A stretch of 64,000 nucleotides of DNA from Tuwongella immobilis (GTDB taxonomy: Bacteria > Planctomycetota > Planctomycetia > Gemmatales > Gemmataceae). The stretch is taken from positions 2,704,920-2,768,919 of the forward strand of contig NZ_LR593887.1 in NCBI RefSeq assembly GCF_901538355.1, written 5' to 3'. A program made the position numbers and the translations under genes. The first letter of the stretch is position 1. Every line of letters starts with the position of its first letter. This document shows positions 15,700-44,572 of this stretch, piece after piece. The notes beneath the pieces were generated by a model. It ran no database searches. It was given only the letters and a program-made list of their open reading frames with translations, and had not been told where the DNA came from.

Positions 15700-18600
15700 A
15701 TGCTAGTCCGCTTTCGCAAGCCGGAAACATTGGTCGAGGCGATTCAACGCGGTTGGATCGCCTCGGCGACGTTGAATCTCCCCGTTCGCGCACTCCACGA
15801 TGCAGATGGCATCTGGCTGCATCTCGATGCCCGGCTTCCACTTCGGACACGCCATGCCCTCACCGAACTGGGCATCGACTGGGATCCGCCCAAACCACCC
15901 GCCAAACTCATCGCATATCCCGATTGGGCACGGATGCTGCCGCTGATGCCGGTACGCGGCCACGAAATGCCCGTTGGGGTGGAATGCCTGCTGGAAATTC
16001 CGTCGATTCTCGAATTGATTCAGGTGAGTTGCGAATTATCGCGGCTGGGCCGGGCCGATCATCATCTGCGATACCCGACGGTCGAGGGCGAGCCGGGCTA
16101 TCTCCGGGTGCATTCCCCGCCGCAACTGACGATCGAACGCTGGTCATCGGGCCACGACTGCGGCGGAATCGCAGCCTATTGGAAAAGCGGCGATCGGGCA
16201 TGGATTCAATGGGGCTGGCGACATCCCACGCCGGAGCGAATTCCCGGCTCGCCGCTGGGGAGTTGGCTGCTGCGCAACTCCATGCCGTGGCGGGAGTTCG
16301 ATGAACGCGACTTTCTCCCGGCCCGACAACGCGGATTCCTCGCACTCCCGACCCAGGCCACGAACTGGAATGACGGCTCCGCGCCGGTTCGGTATTCCAA
16401 TCCGCTTCGATTACTGCGACAACGGAATCATTCGGGTGCCGCGTCGGCCTGGTGGATCGATGCACCCGCCGAGGCGAATCTGCTCGACTTTCTCCGCGAA
16501 CTTGATGAGCGACGACTCAACCAATTGCAGTTCATGCGGTTGCGCTGCGGGGACCAGATTGCGATTCTTCTGAAAGCGACAGGCCGCGACGAAATCCCGG
16601 TAATGCTGCTGCCGGCGATGGGGTTTCAACCGCTACTCAAATTGGCCTCGTTGCAGATCGCCGATGGTTATCGCATCTCGCCGCCGATTGCCCGCGACCG
16701 GCTACGGGTCGCGCTTGGGTGCGAATCTCCGAATTCCGAATCATCGGAGTCGGATGTTTGGTTGCAACCGCAACCGCAATCGTCGGATGGGGATGCTGCT
16801 CCGGGTGGGATGATCCGCAACGCAATGCCCCCGCGTCGGTTCCAGTCGTTGGCGGATTCGGTGGCGCATGTGGTTTCGGAACCAACGCGGCACTTGCAAG
16901 CGGTTCGCGTGGGCGATGCGTTTCCGATGCTGCCGTTCGACATTGTCGAAGAAGCAACGGCCCCGAAAAAGAAGTCGAAGCAGGATCGGACGGTAGTGCT
17001 CCAGTGGCCAACACAGACCCCCGTGAAGGATGTGGTCAGCCACAAGAAAGCGCAGACACGGCCCGAGCCGCCACCGTTGGAGCCGATTGTCTTCGATGTC
17101 AATCTGACCGATGAACAGATCGTGTTGCAGTTGCGGAACTTGCGTTCGCAGTTGGATGCCCTGGCCGAGAATGCCCCCGATGCCGCTCCCGAGTCGGCGA
17201 GTGTCTCAATCTGGCAGCAAATGGCCGAGCTGTATCATCGCTTGAATCAACCGAACGAGGCGGCGATCTGCTGGTCGCAGGCGATGTGGCTGGCTCCGGA
17301 ATGGAGTGGAGCGATTGTCTCGCGGTGGGACGAGTATGAGCGTCAGACCGTGATTCCTGCCCGGCGTTCGGCGAATCCGAAAGCCTCGCGCATCGATCAA
17401 TATCGCAAGCATTGTCTGGAAATCCTTCTGCCGCTTACAAAAATGCACCCGGAGCCAAGTCGGGAACGCCGTCAGACGATTGTGGAGTCGTTGGAGCTTG
17501 GCGAAGAGACCTTGCCGGTGCGCTTGGTGTGGTTGACTTGGCTGGAGATTACGCAGCAATCGGGTGGCGATGTGCTGGCGTTGACTCGCGCGCGTGATCG
17601 CATCCTGTTGCAGTTACACGAGTTTGGGCTGATTATCGACCGCGATTTGCCATCGGTGTTGCGTGGCGATGTTGCCTTGGAAACGGGGATGGACGCCGGC
17701 CGATTGAATCTGCTCCTGGAGCATGCTCGACGGTGGACCGGGGATCAATCGTCGGCCATTCTCGGCCCGTCGAAAATGCGAGATGGCGCATTTGTGGCGC
17801 TGATTTTCGCGTATGGCTATGCCCGGCAAGGGCTTCGGGAAAATGCCATGGCGCTGCTCCGCTCCGGGGCGGATCGTCTGGCGAAGCAGTCGGTTCCACG
17901 TCGCTGGTTGCTGGAAGCGTATACCGATCGCACGCAACAGGTGCTCGACGGCAAACGGCCCCGCTCGCCGTTGAATGAAGATCTTATCCGCTTGCGAATG
18001 AAGCTGCCCAGTCCAGATGCGCGCACCGTCAATTTTCTGATGCAGCGGTCGCAACTGCTCGACCCCAGCGCGGTCAACGATCCGCTGCAAGTCTTCGAAG
18101 TCGATCCGAACTCGGCATTGGCGAAGGAGTTGGGCCGATTCCGCGAGTTGGTTTCGCCGGCCGTGTTGGAGCGGCGATTCCCAGAACTGTTGGCTCAATA
18201 CACCACAAAATCCGAACGATTCTTGATTCTTCGCGAGGCGATCTCGAAGGCATTCCAGGTCCGCGATTCCTTCGCGCAGTTGGTGTTCTCGCAAATTAGG
18301 ACGGTTCGTCAACAGTTTGGGTATTTCATCGATTTGCCTGCCATGTTGCAATGGGGCACGCTGTTGGAGACGGCGTTGGCGTTGGCTGGCCACCACGAAC
18401 GCCCCGCCGAAATTCGCACGGTCATGCAACATTACCAGGAGATGCTGAAGCCGCTGCAGGGCGAGCGGGCCGCATGGTTTATCGGCGGCATGAATCCGGG
18501 CATCTTCCGGCGATTGGCCAAACTCGGCGAAGCGACGTTGGCCGCGGAGTTCCACAACGACTTGGCGACCAAGGTGATTCTGACCGAAGGCATTCAGGCG

Positions 18601-36786: not shown

Positions 36787-37953
36787 TTAGGCATCTCGCT
36801 GGGACTCATTGGCAGCAATGAGTTGATTTTGGCGATCGAATCGACGGCTCAGCACATAGAAGCCGGGAGCCAGCATGATGCAGATCCCGGAATAAAGCCA
36901 CGGTAAAACGTCGTAGGCCGCTGATTTCGGATTCAACGCCACCATCACAAACAGCGTCGCGGCGAGGATCGCGGTCAACGAGATGGCGTAGCACACGCTC
37001 GACGCCGTTTCACGCCAGTTGTCGTGGGAATTGGTCATTGTCGTTCTCCAGGGATGAAAGGATGAGCTAGCAGAAATCGGGACAAACTTGCCGATCGTTT
37101 TCGGAAGTCGTGTTTCCATCGGGGGTTGTAGCAGTTCTGGAATTCGTTTCGCGATGGTCCAAAGCGCGATGCGGAACTTCGTCCTCGCTGGCACCACGGC
37201 GCGGCCTTGCGATGCTCGGTAGCCGTGAGCGGAAATCCGCTCGCCGATCGCTCGATAGACTTGTGAGGCGACATCGATTGCGATGCGATTGCGTGCGGCC
37301 AGGTGCTTCAAACCTGCGTCGCCGGAGGCGTAGTAGCGATCGGCGAGTTCCAAGCATTTCTGAATCGCCGGCGCAACGCAATCGTCCGAAAGCGGCGATC
37401 CAGGTTGGGGCAACTCGGGCAGCCACTCGGCGGGCAGATACAATCGGCCACGTTGCCAATCTTCCTGGACGTCCCGCGCGATATTGGTCAACTGCATGGC
37501 GATGCCGAGATGCGAAGCGTGGAGCAACGCCTGTTCGCGGGTAATCTCCAACGCGTGGCACATCATGCAGCCCACGACCCCGGCGACGCGGTAACTGTAT
37601 CGCAACAGGTCGTCCACGGTTTGGTATGAATGTCCGAGCACGTCCATTTCCATGCCACGGACCAATTCCAAAGGATACTCCAACGGAAGCTGGCATTCCT
37701 GAACGATTTGCAACAACCGCTCACCTGCTGCGATGGTGGGGGGATGTTGCTGTTGGATGCGCTCTATGTCGTCTCGTAACTGCTCGAGAAAGGCGGCGGC
37801 TTGCCGGGGATCTTCGGCCAGATCGACCGAATCATCCACCATGCGGCACCAAGCATACAGCGCTTCGGCGCGTCGGCGAGCCGCGGCGGGGAGCAATGCT
37901 GCTGCAAGCGAGAAACTCTTCGAATGTTTCTGAATCGTTTGACGATCGTTCAT
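36787..37953 (-). CDS. crtB: Phytoene synthase with fused C-terminal membrane segment
   Basis: Joins two GGPP molecules to phytoene, the first committed carotenoid step. Residues 1-300 form a complete trans-isoprenyl synthase with both Asp motifs: DDSVD (40-44) and DVQED (161-165), plus RGRLYLP. GAGGAG precedes the ATG at 37953, and the start overlaps the crtI stop as ATGA. The frame then runs on without a stop into about 83 more residues that begin MTNSHDNWRE (residue 306) and hold two hydrophobic helices (ISLTAILAATLFVMVAL, LYSGICIMLAPGFYVL). An ATG at 37038 with GGAG eight bases upstream could also start this part as a separate small protein. It is the last gene of the operon. Confidence 0.85.
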   Translation of the reverse strand: MNDRQTIQKHSKSFSLAAALLPAAARRRAEALYAWCRMVDDSVDLAEDPRQAAAFLEQLRDDIERIQQQHPPTIAAGERLLQIVQECQLPLEYPLELVRGMEMDVLGHSYQTVDDLLRYSYRVAGVVGCMMCHALEITREQALLHASHLGIAMQLTNIARDVQEDWQRGRLYLPAEWLPELPQPGSPLSDDCVAPAIQKCLELADRYYASGDAGLKHLAARNRIAIDVASQVYRAIGERISAHGYRASQGRAVVPARTKFRIALWTIAKRIPELLQPPMETRLPKTIGKFVPISASSSFHPWRTTMTNSHDNWRETASSVCYAISLTAILAATLFVMVALNPKSAAYDVLPWLYSGICIMLAPGFYVLSRRFDRQNQLIAANESQRDA

Positions 37954-39455
37954 AAGCGATACTCCTCGGCGATCACGGAAAGAGTCGCTTTCGCGGAGTT
38001 GACGACACCCGGGACGCCAGCACCGGGATGGGTTCCCGCACCGACGAGGTACAATCCAGGAATCTGCGCATCCCGATTGTGCGGGCGAAAATAGGCACTT
38101 TGGGTTAATCGAGGGGCCACGGAAAAGGCCGACCCCTGATGCGCATTCCACACCGTCTGAAAGTCTTTTGGCGTAAAGACTTTCTGCGTCACGAGATGCT
38201 GACGCAGTCCGGGTAAATGGGTGGCTTCCAGCGATTCCAAAATCCGCTCCGCGTAACGTGGCCCTTCGATGTCCCAATCAATCGGCGCTTTTCCAAGATG
38301 CGGAACCGGGCTGAGGACGTAGAACGCTTCGCAGCCTTCGGGTGCCAGCGAAGGATCGGTGACCGTCGGTGCGTGCAGATACAGACTGAAATCATCGGGC
38401 AGCGAATGGCCATGGAAAATATCGTCGAGCAGCCCTTTGTATCGCGGCCCAAACAGGATCGTATGGTGGGCCAAGTCGGGGTAACGGATGCGGGTGCCGA
38501 AATAAATCACCATCAGCGACATCGACCATTCCATGCGTTCCAGCGATTGTCGCATCTTTGCCGCTGCGGGGACTTCTCGGTAGATGTGTCCGTAAGTATG
38601 GTGCAGATCGGCATTTGAAAGGACGATATCGAACGGCTCGGCGGTCTTCGTCGGCGTCGTGAGATAGTGTCGTGGGGCTATGCGTGTTCGATCGCTCGGG
38701 CCCAGATGCACCGCCTGCACGGGGGAATTCAATCGCAACTCGCCGCCGATATCTTGGAACAATCGCACGAATGCATTGACGAGTGCCCCAGTTCCACCAC
38801 GCGGAAAGTAGACGCCCCATTCTCGTTCGATGTGGTGAATCAGGGTGTAAACGGCACTGGTTTCGTAGGGATTCCCACCGACGAGCAGGGGATGGAAGCT
38901 GAATGCCTGGCGAAGATGCTCATCGCTGAGAAATCGGGCGACGGTATGATAGACACTGCGATCCGCGCGGAGTTTCGCAAGGTGCGGAGCCGCCCGAACC
39001 ATGTCCCAGAAGTGCAGAAACGGCTTGGCACCGAGTTCGACGTAGCCCTTTTGAAACACCTGCTTGGAATATGCCGCAAATCGTCGGTAACCGTCCACAT
39101 CATTCGGTTGGATGCGGCGAATCTGTTCGAGGAGTCTTTCTTCGGACTGAACGTAGTCGAACGTCACGCCGTCGGGCCATACGAGGCGGTACATGGGCGA
39201 AACGGGGAGCAGCTCGACATAATCGGCGAGATTTCGACCCGCGGATTGGAACACTTCTTCCAAACATTCGGGGGCGGTGATGACCGTCGGCCCGGCGTCG
39301 AAGGTGAAGCCTGCATCCCGATACACGGCCGCGCGACCACCCGGTTGGTCGCGTGCTTCCAGGAGCGTGGTTTGAATGCCGAGGGCTTGCAGGCGGCAGG
39401 CGGCGGCCAGTCCCCCGAAGCCACTCCCAATAACGGCGGCACGCAAGTTAGACAT
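37950..39455 (-). CDS. crtI: Phytoene desaturase
   Basis: FAD-dependent desaturase that converts phytoene to lycopene. From the ATG at 39455 (MSNLRAAVIGSG) it has 501 residues. The dinucleotide-binding motif is GSGFGGLAAA (10-19), followed by the family block LLEARDQPGGRA. The C-terminal YLVGAGTHPGAGVPGVVNSAKAT is the CrtI signature. The start lies within the end of crtE (8-base overlap) and the stop overlaps crtB, so the genes are translationally coupled. Confidence 0.93.
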   Translation of the reverse strand: MSNLRAAVIGSGFGGLAAACRLQALGIQTTLLEARDQPGGRAAVYRDAGFTFDAGPTVITAPECLEEVFQSAGRNLADYVELLPVSPMYRLVWPDGVTFDYVQSEERLLEQIRRIQPNDVDGYRRFAAYSKQVFQKGYVELGAKPFLHFWDMVRAAPHLAKLRADRSVYHTVARFLSDEHLRQAFSFHPLLVGGNPYETSAVYTLIHHIEREWGVYFPRGGTGALVNAFVRLFQDIGGELRLNSPVQAVHLGPSDRTRIAPRHYLTTPTKTAEPFDIVLSNADLHHTYGHIYREVPAAAKMRQSLERMEWSMSLMVIYFGTRIRYPDLAHHTILFGPRYKGLLDDIFHGHSLPDDFSLYLHAPTVTDPSLAPEGCEAFYVLSPVPHLGKAPIDWDIEGPRYAERILESLEATHLPGLRQHLVTQKVFTPKDFQTVWNAHQGSAFSVAPRLTQSAYFRPHNRDAQIPGLYLVGAGTHPGAGVPGVVNSAKATLSVIAEEYRL

Positions 39456-40479
39456 AACGAGTCTCCAGCCGTTTAATCTCGGCATGTAGGGCTTGCATCG
39501 CCGGGGAATCCGGGAGCGTTTCGGTCAGATTGGCCCAAGCGGAGTCGAGCCAGTCGCGGACCAATCGTGCGGGCGATGAGCCGAGCGCTGCAAGCAGATC
39601 GTCGGCCAAGGTCGCCGCGCAACCGATTCCCTGGGTGAGCTTTGCGGCCCGCAATTGCAGCCAATCGAACTGCGCGGAAGGCAGTCGTTCGGCGGCCCAT
39701 GCCCATGGCCACGTCGCTCGGCCATGAATCAGATCTTCGGGATGTTTCAGCGGTCCTGCTGCGCCGGTCAATTCGGAGAGGTCGTTCTGCATTTGCAGCG
39801 CGATTCCGAGGTGTTCCCCGAATTGTTCCAGTGCGTGGAATGTCTCGGGTGGCGCATCGGCGGCAATTGCACCGAGCGACCCGGCCAATGCCATCAGACT
39901 CCCCGTTTTCCAGGCGCTGATGGTCTGCACCACGGGCCGAATTTCCGAGGGGTGCAACTCCCCGATTTTGGCGGCGAGGTCGAGGGCTTGCCCTTCGTGA
40001 CAGCGTTGGATCGTGTCCAGACAGCATGCGATCAGCCGCGATTCGACCGATGGGTCAAAATGCGACTCTCGAATCAGTTTCATCGGCCAAAAGTAGAGCC
40101 AATTCCCGGCGTTGAGTGCCAGCGGCAGCCCAATTTGGCGATGCAGTGCCGGGCGGCCGCGACGTTGCAGCGAATCGTCTTGAATGTCATCGACAATCAG
40201 CGAACCGGCGTGCAGCAACTCGACCACCCAACCGAGGATAGGCGGAGGCGAATCGGCTTGGCCTCCGAGTTGCCAGGCAAGTTCCACGAAGCGGTGTCGG
40301 AATTGTTTCCCTGGTCGCGTCAGAAATTCGGTGATTGGGCCAGCTAACGCGGATTTCCACAGCGATTGCGGAATGCCTTGCGGAGCGGGCTGAATCGATT
40401 GCAAAAGCTGATCGAGCGTCGAATGATTCCGAACGGGTGAGGTTTGGGAATCGATCGAACGGGCTTGTGTGAGCATCAT
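39448..40479 (-). CDS. crtE: Geranylgeranyl diphosphate synthase-like polyprenyl synthetase
   Basis: Makes the C20 precursor for CrtB. The 343 residues contain the first Asp-rich motif DDIQDD (97-102) and KTGSLM. The second Asp-rich motif, usually DDxxD, reads NDLSE (232-236), so one Asp is Asn and one is Glu. AGGAG lies seven bases before the ATG at 40479, which overlaps the crtY stop as ATGA. Operon position supports a GGPP role despite the altered motif. Confidence 0.85.
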   Translation of the reverse strand: MMLTQARSIDSQTSPVRNHSTLDQLLQSIQPAPQGIPQSLWKSALAGPITEFLTRPGKQFRHRFVELAWQLGGQADSPPPILGWVVELLHAGSLIVDDIQDDSLQRRGRPALHRQIGLPLALNAGNWLYFWPMKLIRESHFDPSVESRLIACCLDTIQRCHEGQALDLAAKIGELHPSEIRPVVQTISAWKTGSLMALAGSLGAIAADAPPETFHALEQFGEHLGIALQMQNDLSELTGAAGPLKHPEDLIHGRATWPWAWAAERLPSAQFDWLQLRAAKLTQGIGCAATLADDLLAALGSSPARLVRDWLDSAWANLTETLPDSPAMQALHAEIKRLETRYV

Positions 40480-41648
40480 CGTTGGCTCCTGGAGAAAGGG
40501 AGCAACCGGAGGAAGTTGATTTGCGGCGGGCGGCCAATCAAGATTCGGGCCGCATCAGTCACCGCGAATTCCATGGAGTAAAATCGTGCGAACACTGCGG
40601 GGGGGAGTGTCCGGTATAAGCGAGCGAAGACCTGCCAGCGCGACTCGGGCGGAACCAAGCAGAATAACAGTCGGTTGAGCAGGCGTGCGAATTTCCAGCG
40701 ATGCGTCAACCGGCGTGCCAGGGTTGCGATGGCGTTGCGTGCCAATTCGGGTGAGACATCGGCGACTGCGAGCGCGAATCGCAGAGCGACGGGGAAGGAG
40801 TATCCCGTCGCGGGATGGAACCAACCGCCGGCGTAACCCCCGCGAATCGGGGCATCCGATGGCGTCTCAGGCGGCGTCTCGGACGGCGTCTCGGGCAGCG
40901 AATTCGGGTGTGAGCGCCAGGGCATGGGCAGCACTCCGGATTCTTCGCGGATGATGCGCCAATCGGGGACGCGCGCGGAAAGATAATCTCGGATCCGTTG
41001 TTCGATCTGCGGTCGATCGAGTTGTGGCGAATCCGAAAAATAGGTGTCTTCCACGAGGATGCGCCGCTTGGTGAACGGCAGAGTGTAGAAAAAGTGGAAG
41101 CCATCGATTTGCGGCACGGTGGCATCCATCACGACTGGGGCAGATTCAGGCCAGTCGCGGTCGGTTTCGATTTCCCAGCCGATGAATTTCTGGTAGCCGC
41201 ACCCCGTTGGGGATTCCAGCGGACCTCGTGAATCGATCACACATTTGGCCGATAGTTCAGTACCATCCGCACATTCGATGCGGTTGTGCGTGAGTCGGAC
41301 GGCAGGGGTCTTCAACCAAATGCGGCAGCCGTCGCGGTTCAAACTCGCCGAGACAACATCGGCAAAGCGATCCGAGGAGATCGTTGAGTAAGCCGCGTTC
41401 AAGCGACGCGACTGATTGGGAAATCGCGTGTCGTATTGCGGCCAATGTGCGGTAATGAGCGGTTGAATGATCGTGTTCGCCGCTGGGGGCACATCCCCAG
41501 AGTGGAATGACCAAGTGTGATTGCCACCGATGCGGTCGCTGGCTTCGATCAACGCGATGCGTGCCGATGGCTTGCGTTCGCGGAGAGCCAAGGCGAGTAG
41601 TCCGCTTTGCAGGCCGCCCCCGACCAAAATGTAGTCGAATTCCGTCAT
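40476..41648 (-). CDS. crtY: Lycopene beta-cyclase (CrtY type)
   Basis: Cyclises lycopene to beta-carotene. The 390-residue flavoprotein has an N-terminal GGGLQSGLLALAL nucleotide-binding motif, GGNHTWSFH, and GYQKFIGWEIETD, typical of CrtY cyclases; FHFFYTLPFTKRRILVEDTYF is also diagnostic. The C-terminal GGYAGGWFHPATGYSFPVA is conserved. A Pro/Glu/Thr repeat (PETPSETPPETPSDAP) has been inserted at about residue 255, encoded by a short imperfect tandem repeat at 40858-40908. The start overlaps the blh stop as ATGA. Confidence 0.9.
   Translation of the reverse strand: MTEFDYILVGGGLQSGLLALALRERKPSARIALIEASDRIGGNHTWSFHSGDVPPAANTIIQPLITAHWPQYDTRFPNQSRRLNAAYSTISSDRFADVVSASLNRDGCRIWLKTPAVRLTHNRIECADGTELSAKCVIDSRGPLESPTGCGYQKFIGWEIETDRDWPESAPVVMDATVPQIDGFHFFYTLPFTKRRILVEDTYFSDSPQLDRPQIEQRIRDYLSARVPDWRIIREESGVLPMPWRSHPNSLPETPSETPPETPSDAPIRGGYAGGWFHPATGYSFPVALRFALAVADVSPELARNAIATLARRLTHRWKFARLLNRLLFCLVPPESRWQVFARLYRTLPPAVFARFYSMEFAVTDAARILIGRPPQINFLRLLPFSRSQR
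40858..40908 (-). repeat. Short tandem repeat inside crtY
   Basis: The + strand shows GGCGTCTC three times, in 12-base units, together with related GGC/GGA variants. In the protein it encodes PETP/SETP-like units. It keeps the crtY frame. Confidence 0.6.
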
Positions 41649-42469
41649 GGGGAAACCTCCGCAAAGGGATTCTGATGATCCGGTACCGCCCAATGCAGCA
41701 GCAGATGCGGCACCGCAACCACGCTCAACCCGATGAAACCGGCTTGCACCAATTTCGGCTCAATGGGGTGACCGGATGTCAGCCACCAACCGAGAGCGAT
41801 GAGCAGACTCGCGCCCATCGATAAGGGGAGCGAGTCCCAGGCGACTCGCAAGAATCCCAGTCGGGGATTCGAGTCATTGGCAAATCGTGCGAGCCGCACC
41901 AATTCCCAGGCCGAGTGCCAGCCACAGAAGTAGATCAAGAACCCCACCAGCGGGGGCGTGAACGCAAAAATTCCAATGAATCCGAGGGTGATCAGACCCG
42001 CTCGCAAGCCGTCCATGAATCGAGACAGAATCGCGGTGATGACCAACAGCCCGAGAAGCGATTGCGTTTCGGGGCGAAACAACATCTCGGATGGCCAGCG
42101 TTGATTCGGGACGACCCAACTCAGAAGTTCCGTGAATGTCTGGGGTTGCAGCAGCGCGGGCACCCAGACGACCAACCCGCCGACAGCGATGAGGCGAACG
42201 AGCGTTTGCCGCCGCGAGGACATCGATTCGGCAAGTCCGAAGTGAATCGCCGAGAGCAACACAAAGCCCGCCAGGGTGACCAGTGGCATCACCAGCCACC
42301 CCAGCAGGACGAGCATCATGATTCCCAGGTATCCCGTTGCAAACAGCATCACCCAGTGCCGGCCAAATTTCGGGCGAAGGAACATCCGACCGAATCGGTG
42401 GTCGAGTCCGCCGTGTGGCATCCCGACCAAAGCGACCAAGCAGACGAATGCGATGGCTTGCAGCGGCAT
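41645..42469 (-). CDS. blh: Brp/Blh-type beta-carotene 15,15'-dioxygenase
   Basis: Membrane enzyme that cleaves beta-carotene to two retinal, the chromophore of the rhodopsin encoded next to it. The 274 residues are largely hydrophobic (about seven helices). The histidine-rich motifs of the family are visible: GMPHGGLDH (16-24), AIHFGLAE, CGWHSAWEL and VPHLLLHW. GGAGAGG precedes the ATG at 42469. It lies 17 bases after the rhodopsin stop and overlaps crtY. Confidence 0.93.
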   Translation of the reverse strand: MPLQAIAFVCLVALVGMPHGGLDHRFGRMFLRPKFGRHWVMLFATGYLGIMMLVLLGWLVMPLVTLAGFVLLSAIHFGLAESMSSRRQTLVRLIAVGGLVVWVPALLQPQTFTELLSWVVPNQRWPSEMLFRPETQSLLGLLVITAILSRFMDGLRAGLITLGFIGIFAFTPPLVGFLIYFCGWHSAWELVRLARFANDSNPRLGFLRVAWDSLPLSMGASLLIALGWWLTSGHPIEPKLVQAGFIGLSVVAVPHLLLHWAVPDHQNPFAEVSP

Positions 42470-42486: not shown

Positions 42487-43323
42487 TTAGGCCATGACGG
42501 CGGCGGCCTTCATTTGCTCGGCTCGTTCTTCATCGGTCATCGATTCAGTCTTGGCACGAGCGATGAAGAAAATCAGCAGGCCGAAGCCAGCCTTCGCGGT
42601 GATGTCCGCAATCGCATAGCCGATCTGCGTGCCGACCACGCCCAAGCCCGATTTTTCCGGAATGAGGCCCGGAATGGCGCCCGGCAGCGAATCGCCGCGG
42701 ATACCATAGGCGATCGGGTAGAACATCCAGGTGGCGACAATCAACAGGCGGGCGAACGACACCAGCGAGCGTACCGAAGGCGGTTGCGTGGCCAGCGACT
42801 TGCCCAATTCCACCCAGAGAATGAACAGGATGTACAGGAACGGCAGGGTGCTGAGCATGCCCCAAACCATCAGAGTTGTCCAGTCCTGCGTAATTTCACC
42901 CGGATAGCCCAGGCCGATCATCAACGCGGCCGCGATGACCAGTTTCGTCAGCATCGGACGAGCGACTTCCTTGGCCAGACCCATGACGGCGATCAGCTCG
43001 ACCATCAGCAAGGGTACGGTGAGAATCCAGTCTGCGTAGCGGTAGAAGTCGTTGAATCCTTTGCCAGTCGGGCTGAACGAACCGTCGGCGTAGCCAAATG
43101 CCGATTGCCAACTGAGTCGGATCATGAAGTAGTGGTAGCAGGCGATTGCCACGACCAGGCCCGAAACCATCAGTGCCGGGCGATACTTCGGCGCAACCAG
43201 GGATCGTGCAGCAAAGAAGAAGATGGCTGCCGCACCCATGGTGGCCACGGTGAGCGAAAACATGTTGTCCACAATGTTGAACTGAAATGCGCTCAGTTGT
43301 GGGAGAGAGCCTAGAAGCATCAT
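42487..43323 (-). CDS. Proton-pumping rhodopsin, xanthorhodopsin/Gloeobacter clade
   Basis: Seven-helix retinal protein, predicted light-driven outward proton pump. With the start at 43323 (MMLLGSLPQ; GGAG seven bases upstream; 43335 is also possible) there are 278 residues. Key sites: H64 near the counterion, the helix-C DTE triad D98, T102, E109 in YRYADWILTVPLLMVEL, and the retinal lysine K244 in DITAKAGFG. L106 is at the spectral-tuning position, which predicts green absorption. Helix E has VWG with G155 at the fenestration glycine position of xanthorhodopsin and Gloeobacter rhodopsin, which makes room for a carotenoid antenna. Clade-specific stretches are GYPGEI and YPIAYGI. First gene of the operon. 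Confidence 0.95.
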   Translation of the reverse strand: MMLLGSLPQLSAFQFNIVDNMFSLTVATMGAAAIFFFAARSLVAPKYRPALMVSGLVVAIACYHYFMIRLSWQSAFGYADGSFSPTGKGFNDFYRYADWILTVPLLMVELIAVMGLAKEVARPMLTKLVIAAALMIGLGYPGEITQDWTTLMVWGMLSTLPFLYILFILWVELGKSLATQPPSVRSLVSFARLLIVATWMFYPIAYGIRGDSLPGAIPGLIPEKSGLGVVGTQIGYAIADITAKAGFGLLIFFIARAKTESMTDEERAEQMKAAAVMA

Positions 43324-44572
43324 CGGATTCTCCATCGGGATTCAAAAATTCGTGCCAAGTCGTTGAAATCAAACCAGTTGCGAAAGCGATGTCGATTGTC
43401 TCAATCATGGAGACAATCCGGGGTTGCGTGGGCGAGGGATCGTCCGTGCAGGCACTGGTGCGCAGTGCTGCGGGCCGATGCATTGCTGCAACGGAAGCAT
43501 GCGTGGAACGGCCATACGATGATCATCCAAGGATGACCACGCAAAGCGGATCATTCAATCGGGAAACGGGTCACCAGCGAAGTCTGTTCAGGAGCGCAAT
43601 CCCGCGCGGTGTGATCCTGGACGAACCGAGGGATGGTTCGCCTGTCGAAACATTCAGAAGCCGTGAGTGAGAAATCTGCCCAGATTCGATCCGCGTGACT
43701 GGGATCAATCGGGTTACCTGGAAATTGTGGGGCGATGCGGCATACTCGGCATTTGGCAGAGCAACGGTCTCGCCTGCACTTGGGAGAAGATCCCCAATAC
43801 CGGATCGATTCATCTCCCATGAGGGGGATCGATCTGCTTCTCCAGGTTGACTATCGAACCGTCGCACACTCCGAAACTTCACCGACGGGCGTCAAGAATT
43901 ACGAAAATTTAACTTGTCTTCTGAGTCGGTGTTGATCCGAGTGACGATTCACAATCATTCTTAGGGCACCCAAATGCCCGAAGTCGAGCAGAAACTGCTG
44001 AAGTATTCGACTTTGCAGGAATCCAAAATGGGACCATTCAGAAGTAGAATCGTCCGGAAATCGAGAAATTGAATGGCGGCGATTGGATGAGGCGGTGAAG
44101 TCGAGGCGGACAAGGAACGGGACAGTTCCGTGGAGATGCGATCATTCGGATGCAATTCATGTCGGTTGGATGATATCGTTTGATGGCTCATGAATTGCGC
44201 GAAAAAGGAAAAAAGAGCGGTTCAGAAAAACCGAAAAAAAGGGAAGAATTCGATGCGAATTTCACTTGCATTGATTGATGAAGAATGTCAACTTAAACCG
44301 ATCACTCTTCATGAGTTCCTCATGAGATTCGTCGGTTTGAGATTGTTGTGTCGGGCGTTAGATCATTCAGGACTCGCAATTCCTGAGTTCTTCTGACGAA
44401 CTGAGTGACCAAGAAGTTCCTGAAAACTTGGCGCAATTTGGATCGTCAAAACGAAGAATCGAAATTCGTTGAGATTGATCCGTTTCGAACTTGACGATGA
44501 CAGTTGATGAGGAAATAATGAAAGTGGCTTGATCCCTTCTTATGTGATTCTTCGTTCACGACAGGTGCCGTT
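43324..44572. other. Long intergenic region upstream of the rhodopsin operon
   Basis: About 1.25 kb, the longest protein-free stretch apart from the rRNA spacers. Only short open frames without domains. It must hold the rhodopsin promoter (minus) and the DUF1559 promoter (plus). The one clear element is the palindrome at 43394-43418. Confidence 0.5.
43394..43418 (-). promoter_or_regulatory. Palindrome upstream of the rhodopsin operon
   Basis: Perfect 9-bp inverted repeat GATTGTCTC (43394-43402) / GAGACAATC (43410-43418) with a 7-base spacer, about 70-95 bases before the rhodopsin start. It looks like a dimeric regulator operator. MerR-type light regulators of carotenoid genes bind long palindromes, but no regulator gene is seen here. 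An RNA hairpin in the leader is the alternative. Confidence 0.45.

What the first reader, a model, noticed from the sequence alone, without database searches (positions are those of the whole stretch)
42487..43323. Fenestration glycine predicts a carotenoid antenna, but no xanthophyll genes are present
G155 in the VWG of helix E corresponds to the glycine in xanthorhodopsin and Gloeobacter rhodopsin that opens a slot for an antenna carotenoid. The operon ends at beta-carotene: no ketolase or hydroxylase is seen nearby. Known antennae are keto or hydroxy carotenoids. The needed modification enzyme may be elsewhere, or the slot is unused or takes another pigment.
Basis: partly seen in the sequence, partly recalled or inferred. 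Interest (0 to 1): 0.6.

Follow-up and report, generated by a model that had tools for sequence, protein, structure and literature searches.

The report
Open-slot planctomycete rhodopsin, antenna pigment unknown
A planctomycete bacterium carries a light-driven proton pump with the open side slot that related pumps use to hold a helper pigment, yet neither its genome nor those of its phylum relatives with such pumps show the usual genes for making that pigment, so the slot takes an unrecognised pigment, takes a borrowed one, or is empty.

Summary
Confirmed and extended. The ORF at 42487-43335 (-) is a DTE-type xanthorhodopsin (XR); its closest solved structure is S. ruber XR. The operon is rho-blh-crtY-crtE-crtI-crtB and stops at beta-carotene. 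In the single-contig 6.69-Mb genome no CrtZ-type (PF04116) or CrtW-type (NF045690) gene was found. The only CrtO-like and P450 genes are not linked to rhodopsin. The pattern is phylum-wide: 41 of 44 rhodopsins in one planctomycete clade keep the glycine, the operon is conserved wherever the contig is long enough, and no convincing crtW was found in the genomes searched. Bdellovibrionota controls carry crtW about 5 kb from the rhodopsin. Their helix F has the Pro-Met pocket of keto-carotenoid binders; the planctomycete clade instead has Gly-Gly-Thr or x-Gly-Asp and a longer F-G loop. So the slot is probably open but not of the keto type, and any pigment would come from an unrecognised route, be scavenged, or be absent. 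Gly is the common state in XR relatives, so it does not by itself predict an antenna. Carotenoid binding is untested.

The parts
42487..43335 (-). Xanthorhodopsin-type rhodopsin, DTE proton-pump motif (D102, T106, E113), retinal lysine K248
   Evidence: PF01036 138 bits; best solved relative XR 3ddl, E 3.8e-77; AF2 pLDDT 87.9 and Z 31.8-34.6 to XR-type structures
42859..42861 (-).
   Evidence: Aligned without gaps to XR G156, GR G178, Kin4B8 G153; Gly in 41 of 44 clade members
42691..42708 (-). Helix F end, Y210-G-I-R-G-D215, where the antenna ring sits in Kin4B8 (Y204 to Y209)
   Evidence: Neither keto type (Y-x-x-P-M) nor 3-hydroxy type (S/T at 208) by straight count; helix ends at 213 in the model, low confidence after it
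41645..42469 (-). blh, beta-carotene 15,15'-dioxygenase (makes retinal)
   Evidence: TIGR03753 159 bits, over cut-off
40476..41693 (-). crtY, lycopene beta-cyclase (true start probably near 41645)
   Evidence: TIGR01789 312 bits, over cut-off
39448..40479 (-). crtE-type polyprenyl (GGPP) synthase
   Evidence: Superfamily-level NCBIfam matches only, all below their cut-offs; function assigned from operon context
37950..39485 (-). crtI-family phytoene desaturase
   Evidence: TIGR02734 657 bits, over cut-off
36787..38277 (-). crtB-type phytoene synthase, last gene of the operon; probable start near 37959
   Evidence: NF045921 200 bits, below its cut-off of 500; conserved position in relatives

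Best explanation
It is a light-driven proton pump of the xanthorhodopsin family whose operon makes its own retinal: GGPP to phytoene, lycopene and beta-carotene, then retinal through Blh. Helix E has the open fenestration next to the retinal ring. The wall of the slot at the end of helix F is not the keto-carotenoid type, and by straight count it lacks the Ser/Thr that holds 3-hydroxy carotenoids. No canonical ketolase or hydroxylase was found in the genome. The most likely reading is that the slot is real and open, and that any antenna is a carotenoid not made by CrtW, CrtZ or CrtR-type enzymes: a product of an unrecognised modifying enzyme, of the second carotenoid locus at 4.16 Mb, or beta-carotene held by a remodelled pocket. 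Shown: sequence, operon, absence of the canonical families, clade-wide conservation. Inferred: proton pumping, an open slot, any pigment in it.
For: Alignment and fold. No PF04116, CrtW or CruF match in the genome. Gly kept in 41 of 44 clade members with one loss, to Phe, while positions 153, 157 and 160 of the same helix changed 20, 18 and 12 times. Operon conserved in members with long enough contigs. Positive control: crtW in 4 of 4 Bdellovibrionota genomes at 208-226 bits, about 5 kb from a rhodopsin with the Pro-Met pocket. A second locus with two CrtI-family enzymes, an acyltransferase and a glycosyltransferase.
Against: No binding data. Gly is the common family state, and its column changes no less than the median column of this protein (one change each), so retention may reflect packing around retinal. 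Beta-carotene does not bind Kin4B8 (PMC12308411). The residues equivalent to 208 and 209 lie at the start of a low-confidence loop, so their assignment is uncertain. Relatives share ancestry, so conservation is not many independent events.
Confidence: 0.42

Rival explanations
1. The slot is unused: Gly is an inherited state kept for packing around the retinal ring, lipid fills the gap, and the protein works as a simple retinal pump.
For: No canonical antenna-making gene in the genome, and no convincing one in the clade. Pocket residues differ from all characterised binders. Gly is common in the family.
Against: In GR, replacing Gly with Trp gave a more stable and better pump (PMC9151804), so an unused slot might be expected to close. 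It closed only once in the 44-member clade, though Isosphaera-type relatives have Trp or Phe.
Confidence: 0.33
2. The antenna is a xanthophyll taken up from neighbours such as cyanobacteria or algae.
For: A polar residue (D or T) at the second pocket position recalls the hydroxy-carotenoid binder KR1, which has D. Scavenging was raised as a possibility for actinorhodopsin (PMC8113403).
Against: The Ser/Thr essential for hydroxy binding in Kin4B8 (S208A leaves 2% binding) is Gly here by straight count. No uptake system was identified.
Confidence: 0.13
3. An enzyme already visible in the genome makes the xanthophyll: the P450 at 1.39 Mb (nearest solved relatives include plant CYP97 carotenoid hydroxylases) or the CrtO-like flavoenzyme at 6.27 Mb.
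For: The P450 matches CYP97A3 (LUT5) at 189 bits, behind only two bacterial P450s among solved structures. The CrtO-like protein matches the CrtO model at 306 bits over its whole length.
Against: P450: found in 30 of 59 relatives irrespective of rhodopsin, and absent from the genome (G015) whose rhodopsin is 85% identical. CrtO-like: 57-74% identical copies in most genomes of the order regardless of rhodopsin, with a score far below the model's cut-off of 1000.
Confidence: 0.1

Closest known systems
Xanthorhodopsin of Salinibacter ruber (3ddl)
   Same: Closest solved relative by sequence (E 3.8e-77); DTE motif, fenestration Gly, conserved helix F Tyr, same fold (Z 33.6)
   Different: XR has Y-M-I-P-M-A on helix F and binds the 4-keto salinixanthin; here Y-G-I-R-G-D, a longer F-G loop and no ketolase
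Kin4B8 (7ytb, zeaxanthin-bound 8i2z)
   Same: Fenestration Gly, helix F Tyr, same fold (Z 33.7)
   Different: Kin4B8 uses Ser208 and Tyr209 to hold 3-hydroxy carotenoids; the positions here read Gly and Asp by straight count
Gloeobacter rhodopsin (6nwd)
   Same: Gly178 equivalent; F185, P226 and I227 equivalents kept (F166, P207, I208); T182 equivalent is T163
   Different: T179 equivalent is Met160; no Pro-Met on helix F; GR binds keto carotenoids
Bdellovibrionota fenestrated rhodopsins found here (L082, L084, L085, L090-L093)
   Same: Gly, DTE, about 52-55% identity, carotenoid genes near
   Different: crtW ketolase about 5 kb away, Pro-Met pocket, short F-G loop

Membership tests
Xanthorhodopsin family (proton-pumping) | DTE motif, Schiff-base lysine, closest sequence and fold match to XR and GR | tested here: met
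Carotenoid-antenna rhodopsins | Glycine at the XR G156 position (open fenestration) | tested here: met
   G159, ungapped alignment
Carotenoid-antenna rhodopsins | Helix F tyrosine conserved in all known binders (Kin4B8 Y204) | tested here: met
   Y210
Carotenoid-antenna rhodopsins | A bound carotenoid that passes energy to retinal | not testable with these tools
   Needs purified protein
Keto-carotenoid (XR/GR) pocket type | Hydrophobic Met at the Kin4B8 208 position, in a Pro-Met pair | tested here: not met
   No Pro-Met in the window protein or in its clade; present in XR, GR and 7 crtW-linked rhodopsins
3-hydroxy-carotenoid (Kin4B8/KR1) pocket type | Ser or Thr at 208 and a polar residue at 209 | tested here: inconclusive
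   Straight count gives Gly and Asp, but the stretch starts a low-confidence loop
Host able to make canonical antenna xanthophylls | crtW, crtZ, crtO or crtR-type gene in the genome | tested here: not met
   PF04116 none, NF045690 none, CrtO and CrtR models only far below cut-offs

The most novel reading that the evidence does not exclude
The planctomycete clade uses a new antenna chemistry: its remodelled slot, with the Gly-Gly-Thr or x-Gly-Asp end of helix F and a long F-G loop, holds a carotenoid without a 4-keto or 3-hydroxy beta ring, for example beta-carotene itself or an acyclic glycosylated carotenoid, or one made by an unknown oxygenase.
Probability: 0.22. Interest if true: 0.72.

Novelty: new variant of a known kind. 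Interest (0 to 1): 0.42.

Why it matters
The open-slot glycine is now used to infer antenna-bearing rhodopsins in genomes and metagenomes (for example PMC13043013). A phylum-wide clade with the glycine but no canonical pigment genes tests that rule directly: either the rule over-predicts, or an unknown antenna pigment is waiting to be found. The agreement seen here between the Pro-Met pocket and a neighbouring ketolase suggests that helix F letters may be a better predictor than the glycine alone, though it rests on few independent lineages.

Tried and rejected
CrtZ (PF04116): none in G000, G015, G049; in other planctomycete genomes the hits are sterol-desaturase-sized proteins or an uncharacterised family of about 200 aa without a CrtZ label in NCBIfam, so I do not count them as CrtZ, but I did not test their function. 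FA desaturases of the genome score best to GntB-type or DesA models, weakly to CrtR (34 bits against a cut-off of 475). CruF (PF04240) not found in 15 genomes tested. P450 and CrtO-like protein: rejected as rhodopsin-linked by their distribution, not excluded as enzymes. I considered the fixed glycine as proof of selection for an antenna and rejected it: one change in the clade equals the median column. The Pro-Met/crtW association (Fisher p 5e-8) is not corrected for shared ancestry, since all crtW cases are one group. Papers on Kin4B8 discovery and Bacteroidota carotenoid binding were not held. Freshwater planctomycete rhodopsins have been reported before, without mention of carotenoids in the main text (PMC6461901).

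Full report
What is there. The window lies in a single-contig 6.69-Mb genome; the nearest named relatives in the rhodopsin search are Gemmata and Fimbriiglobus MAGs, so it is a Gemmataceae-like planctomycete. The ORF 42487-43335 (-) is a microbial rhodopsin (PF01036, 138 bits), the only one in the genome. Its closest solved relative is xanthorhodopsin 3ddl. It has D102, T106 and E113 (DTE) and the retinal lysine K248. An AlphaFold2 model from 42 sequences (pLDDT 87.9) aligns to thermophilic rhodopsin, psXR, Kin4B8, XR and GR at Z 31.8-34.6.

The glycine. In Kin4B8 and GR a bulky residue here stops carotenoid binding (PMC12308411, PMC9151804). But a survey of 150 GR homologues found Trp in 24% and Phe in 2%, so Gly is the usual state and weak evidence alone.

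The operon. On the minus strand: rho, blh, crtY, crtE-type, crtI, crtB, with short gaps or overlaps. blh, crtY and crtI pass their curated cut-offs; crtE and crtB are assigned from matches below cut-off plus context. The pathway ends at beta-carotene and retinal. A histidine-box motif scan found no hydroxylase or ketolase in the window.

The rest of the genome. CrtZ family PF04116: none at E<=0.1. CrtW model NF045690: none. Three fatty-acid desaturase family proteins, none CrtW-like; CrtR scores 34 bits against 475. CrtO model: best 306 bits against 1000, at 6.27 Mb. One P450, at 1.39 Mb, with CYP97A3 (a plant carotenoid hydroxylase) among its nearest solved relatives. A second carotenoid-like locus at 4.16 Mb holds two CrtI-family enzymes, an acyltransferase and a glycosyltransferase. 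Planctomycetes are known to make C30 carotenoids from squalene, and saproxanthin-type carotenoids (PMC12078418); that this locus is such a pathway is my inference.

Do those candidates track the rhodopsin? The P450 occurs in 30 of 59 relatives and is absent from G015, whose rhodopsin is 85% identical and whose operon is the same. The CrtO-like protein is a core gene of the order (57-74% identity, with or without rhodopsin). Neither is tied to the rhodopsin, though neither is excluded as an enzyme.

The clade. A scan of genome contigs gave 61 relatives. In the tree, 44 planctomycete rhodopsins including the window form one clade (SH-aLRT 100); 41 have Gly and one loss to Phe explains the rest; Isosphaera-type relatives outside it have Trp or Phe. 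Two truncated planctomycete rows left out of the tree (L080, L097) also have Gly. The gene order rho-blh-crtY-crtE-crtI-crtB is conserved wherever the contig is long enough. No genome on the planctomycete side has a CrtW match above 30 bits. For CrtZ the picture is clean only in the window's own group: of its six members, five have no PF04116 match at all and one (G061) has a match with a long open frame of 638 aa; many of the other planctomycetes have PF04116 matches of other or unknown type.

Positive control. In Bdellovibrionota relatives the same scans find crtW about 5 kb from the rhodopsin in seven loci, scored 207-226 bits in the four tested and found in 4 of 4 genomes searched. All seven rhodopsins have Pro-Met on helix F, the letters of the keto-binders XR and GR. 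In the planctomycete clade the same stretch reads Gly-Gly-Thr, Gly-Ser-Thr or, in the window's group, x-Gly-Asp, and the distance from the helix F Tyr to the helix G Gln is 26-32 residues, against 17-22 in XR, GR, Kin4B8 and the Bdellovibrionota proteins. The Fisher p-value of 5e-8 is not corrected for shared ancestry.

Is the slot under selection? In the clade, G159 changed once, as did the median column; positions 153, 157 and 160 of the same helix changed 20, 18 and 12 times. This fits constraint, but constraint from retinal packing would look the same. In GR the Gly-to-Trp change improved stability and pumping, which makes long retention of an unused slot less expected but not impossible.

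Verdict. Observation confirmed; interpretation partly supported. The case is an open-slot XR-type pump with a non-keto pocket in a phylum-wide group without recognised canonical xanthophyll genes. Whether it carries an antenna, and which, needs purified protein. Beta-carotene did not bind Kin4B8, so it should not be assumed here.

Noticed in passing
G000:C1:4163040-4166122 (L019:6843-12196): Second carotenoid-type locus: two CrtI-family enzymes, acyltransferase, HpnB/CruG-like glycosyltransferase, then an SDR; may be a C30 or acyl-glycoside carotenoid pathway.
   Followed up: partly
G000:C1:1390127-1391461 (L021:1480-2817): Single P450 whose nearest solved relatives include plant CYP97 carotenoid hydroxylases; common in relatives, not rhodopsin-linked.
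   Followed up: partly
G000:C1:6268425-6270020 (L015:6426-8024): CrtO-like flavoenzyme, a core gene of the order, function unknown.
   Followed up: partly
L113-L127: Uncharacterised histidine-rich membrane protein family of about 200 aa, weakly PF04116-like, in many planctomycete genomes with rhodopsin; absent from the window's genome.
   Followed up: partly
L094:10001-10798 and 16975-17667: Planctomycetaceae MAG SP176 has a second, divergent rhodopsin (29% identity) just after the same operon; its first rhodopsin has DTA instead of DTE.
   Followed up: no
window 36787-38277: The crtB reading frame has a C-terminal tail with two likely membrane segments, seemingly present in L038 (a conserved second match) but not obvious in L037.
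   Followed up: no
L026:8650-9576, L076, L077, L095: Isosphaera-type planctomycete rhodopsins have Trp or Phe at the slot, so open and closed types coexist in the phylum.
   Followed up: partly
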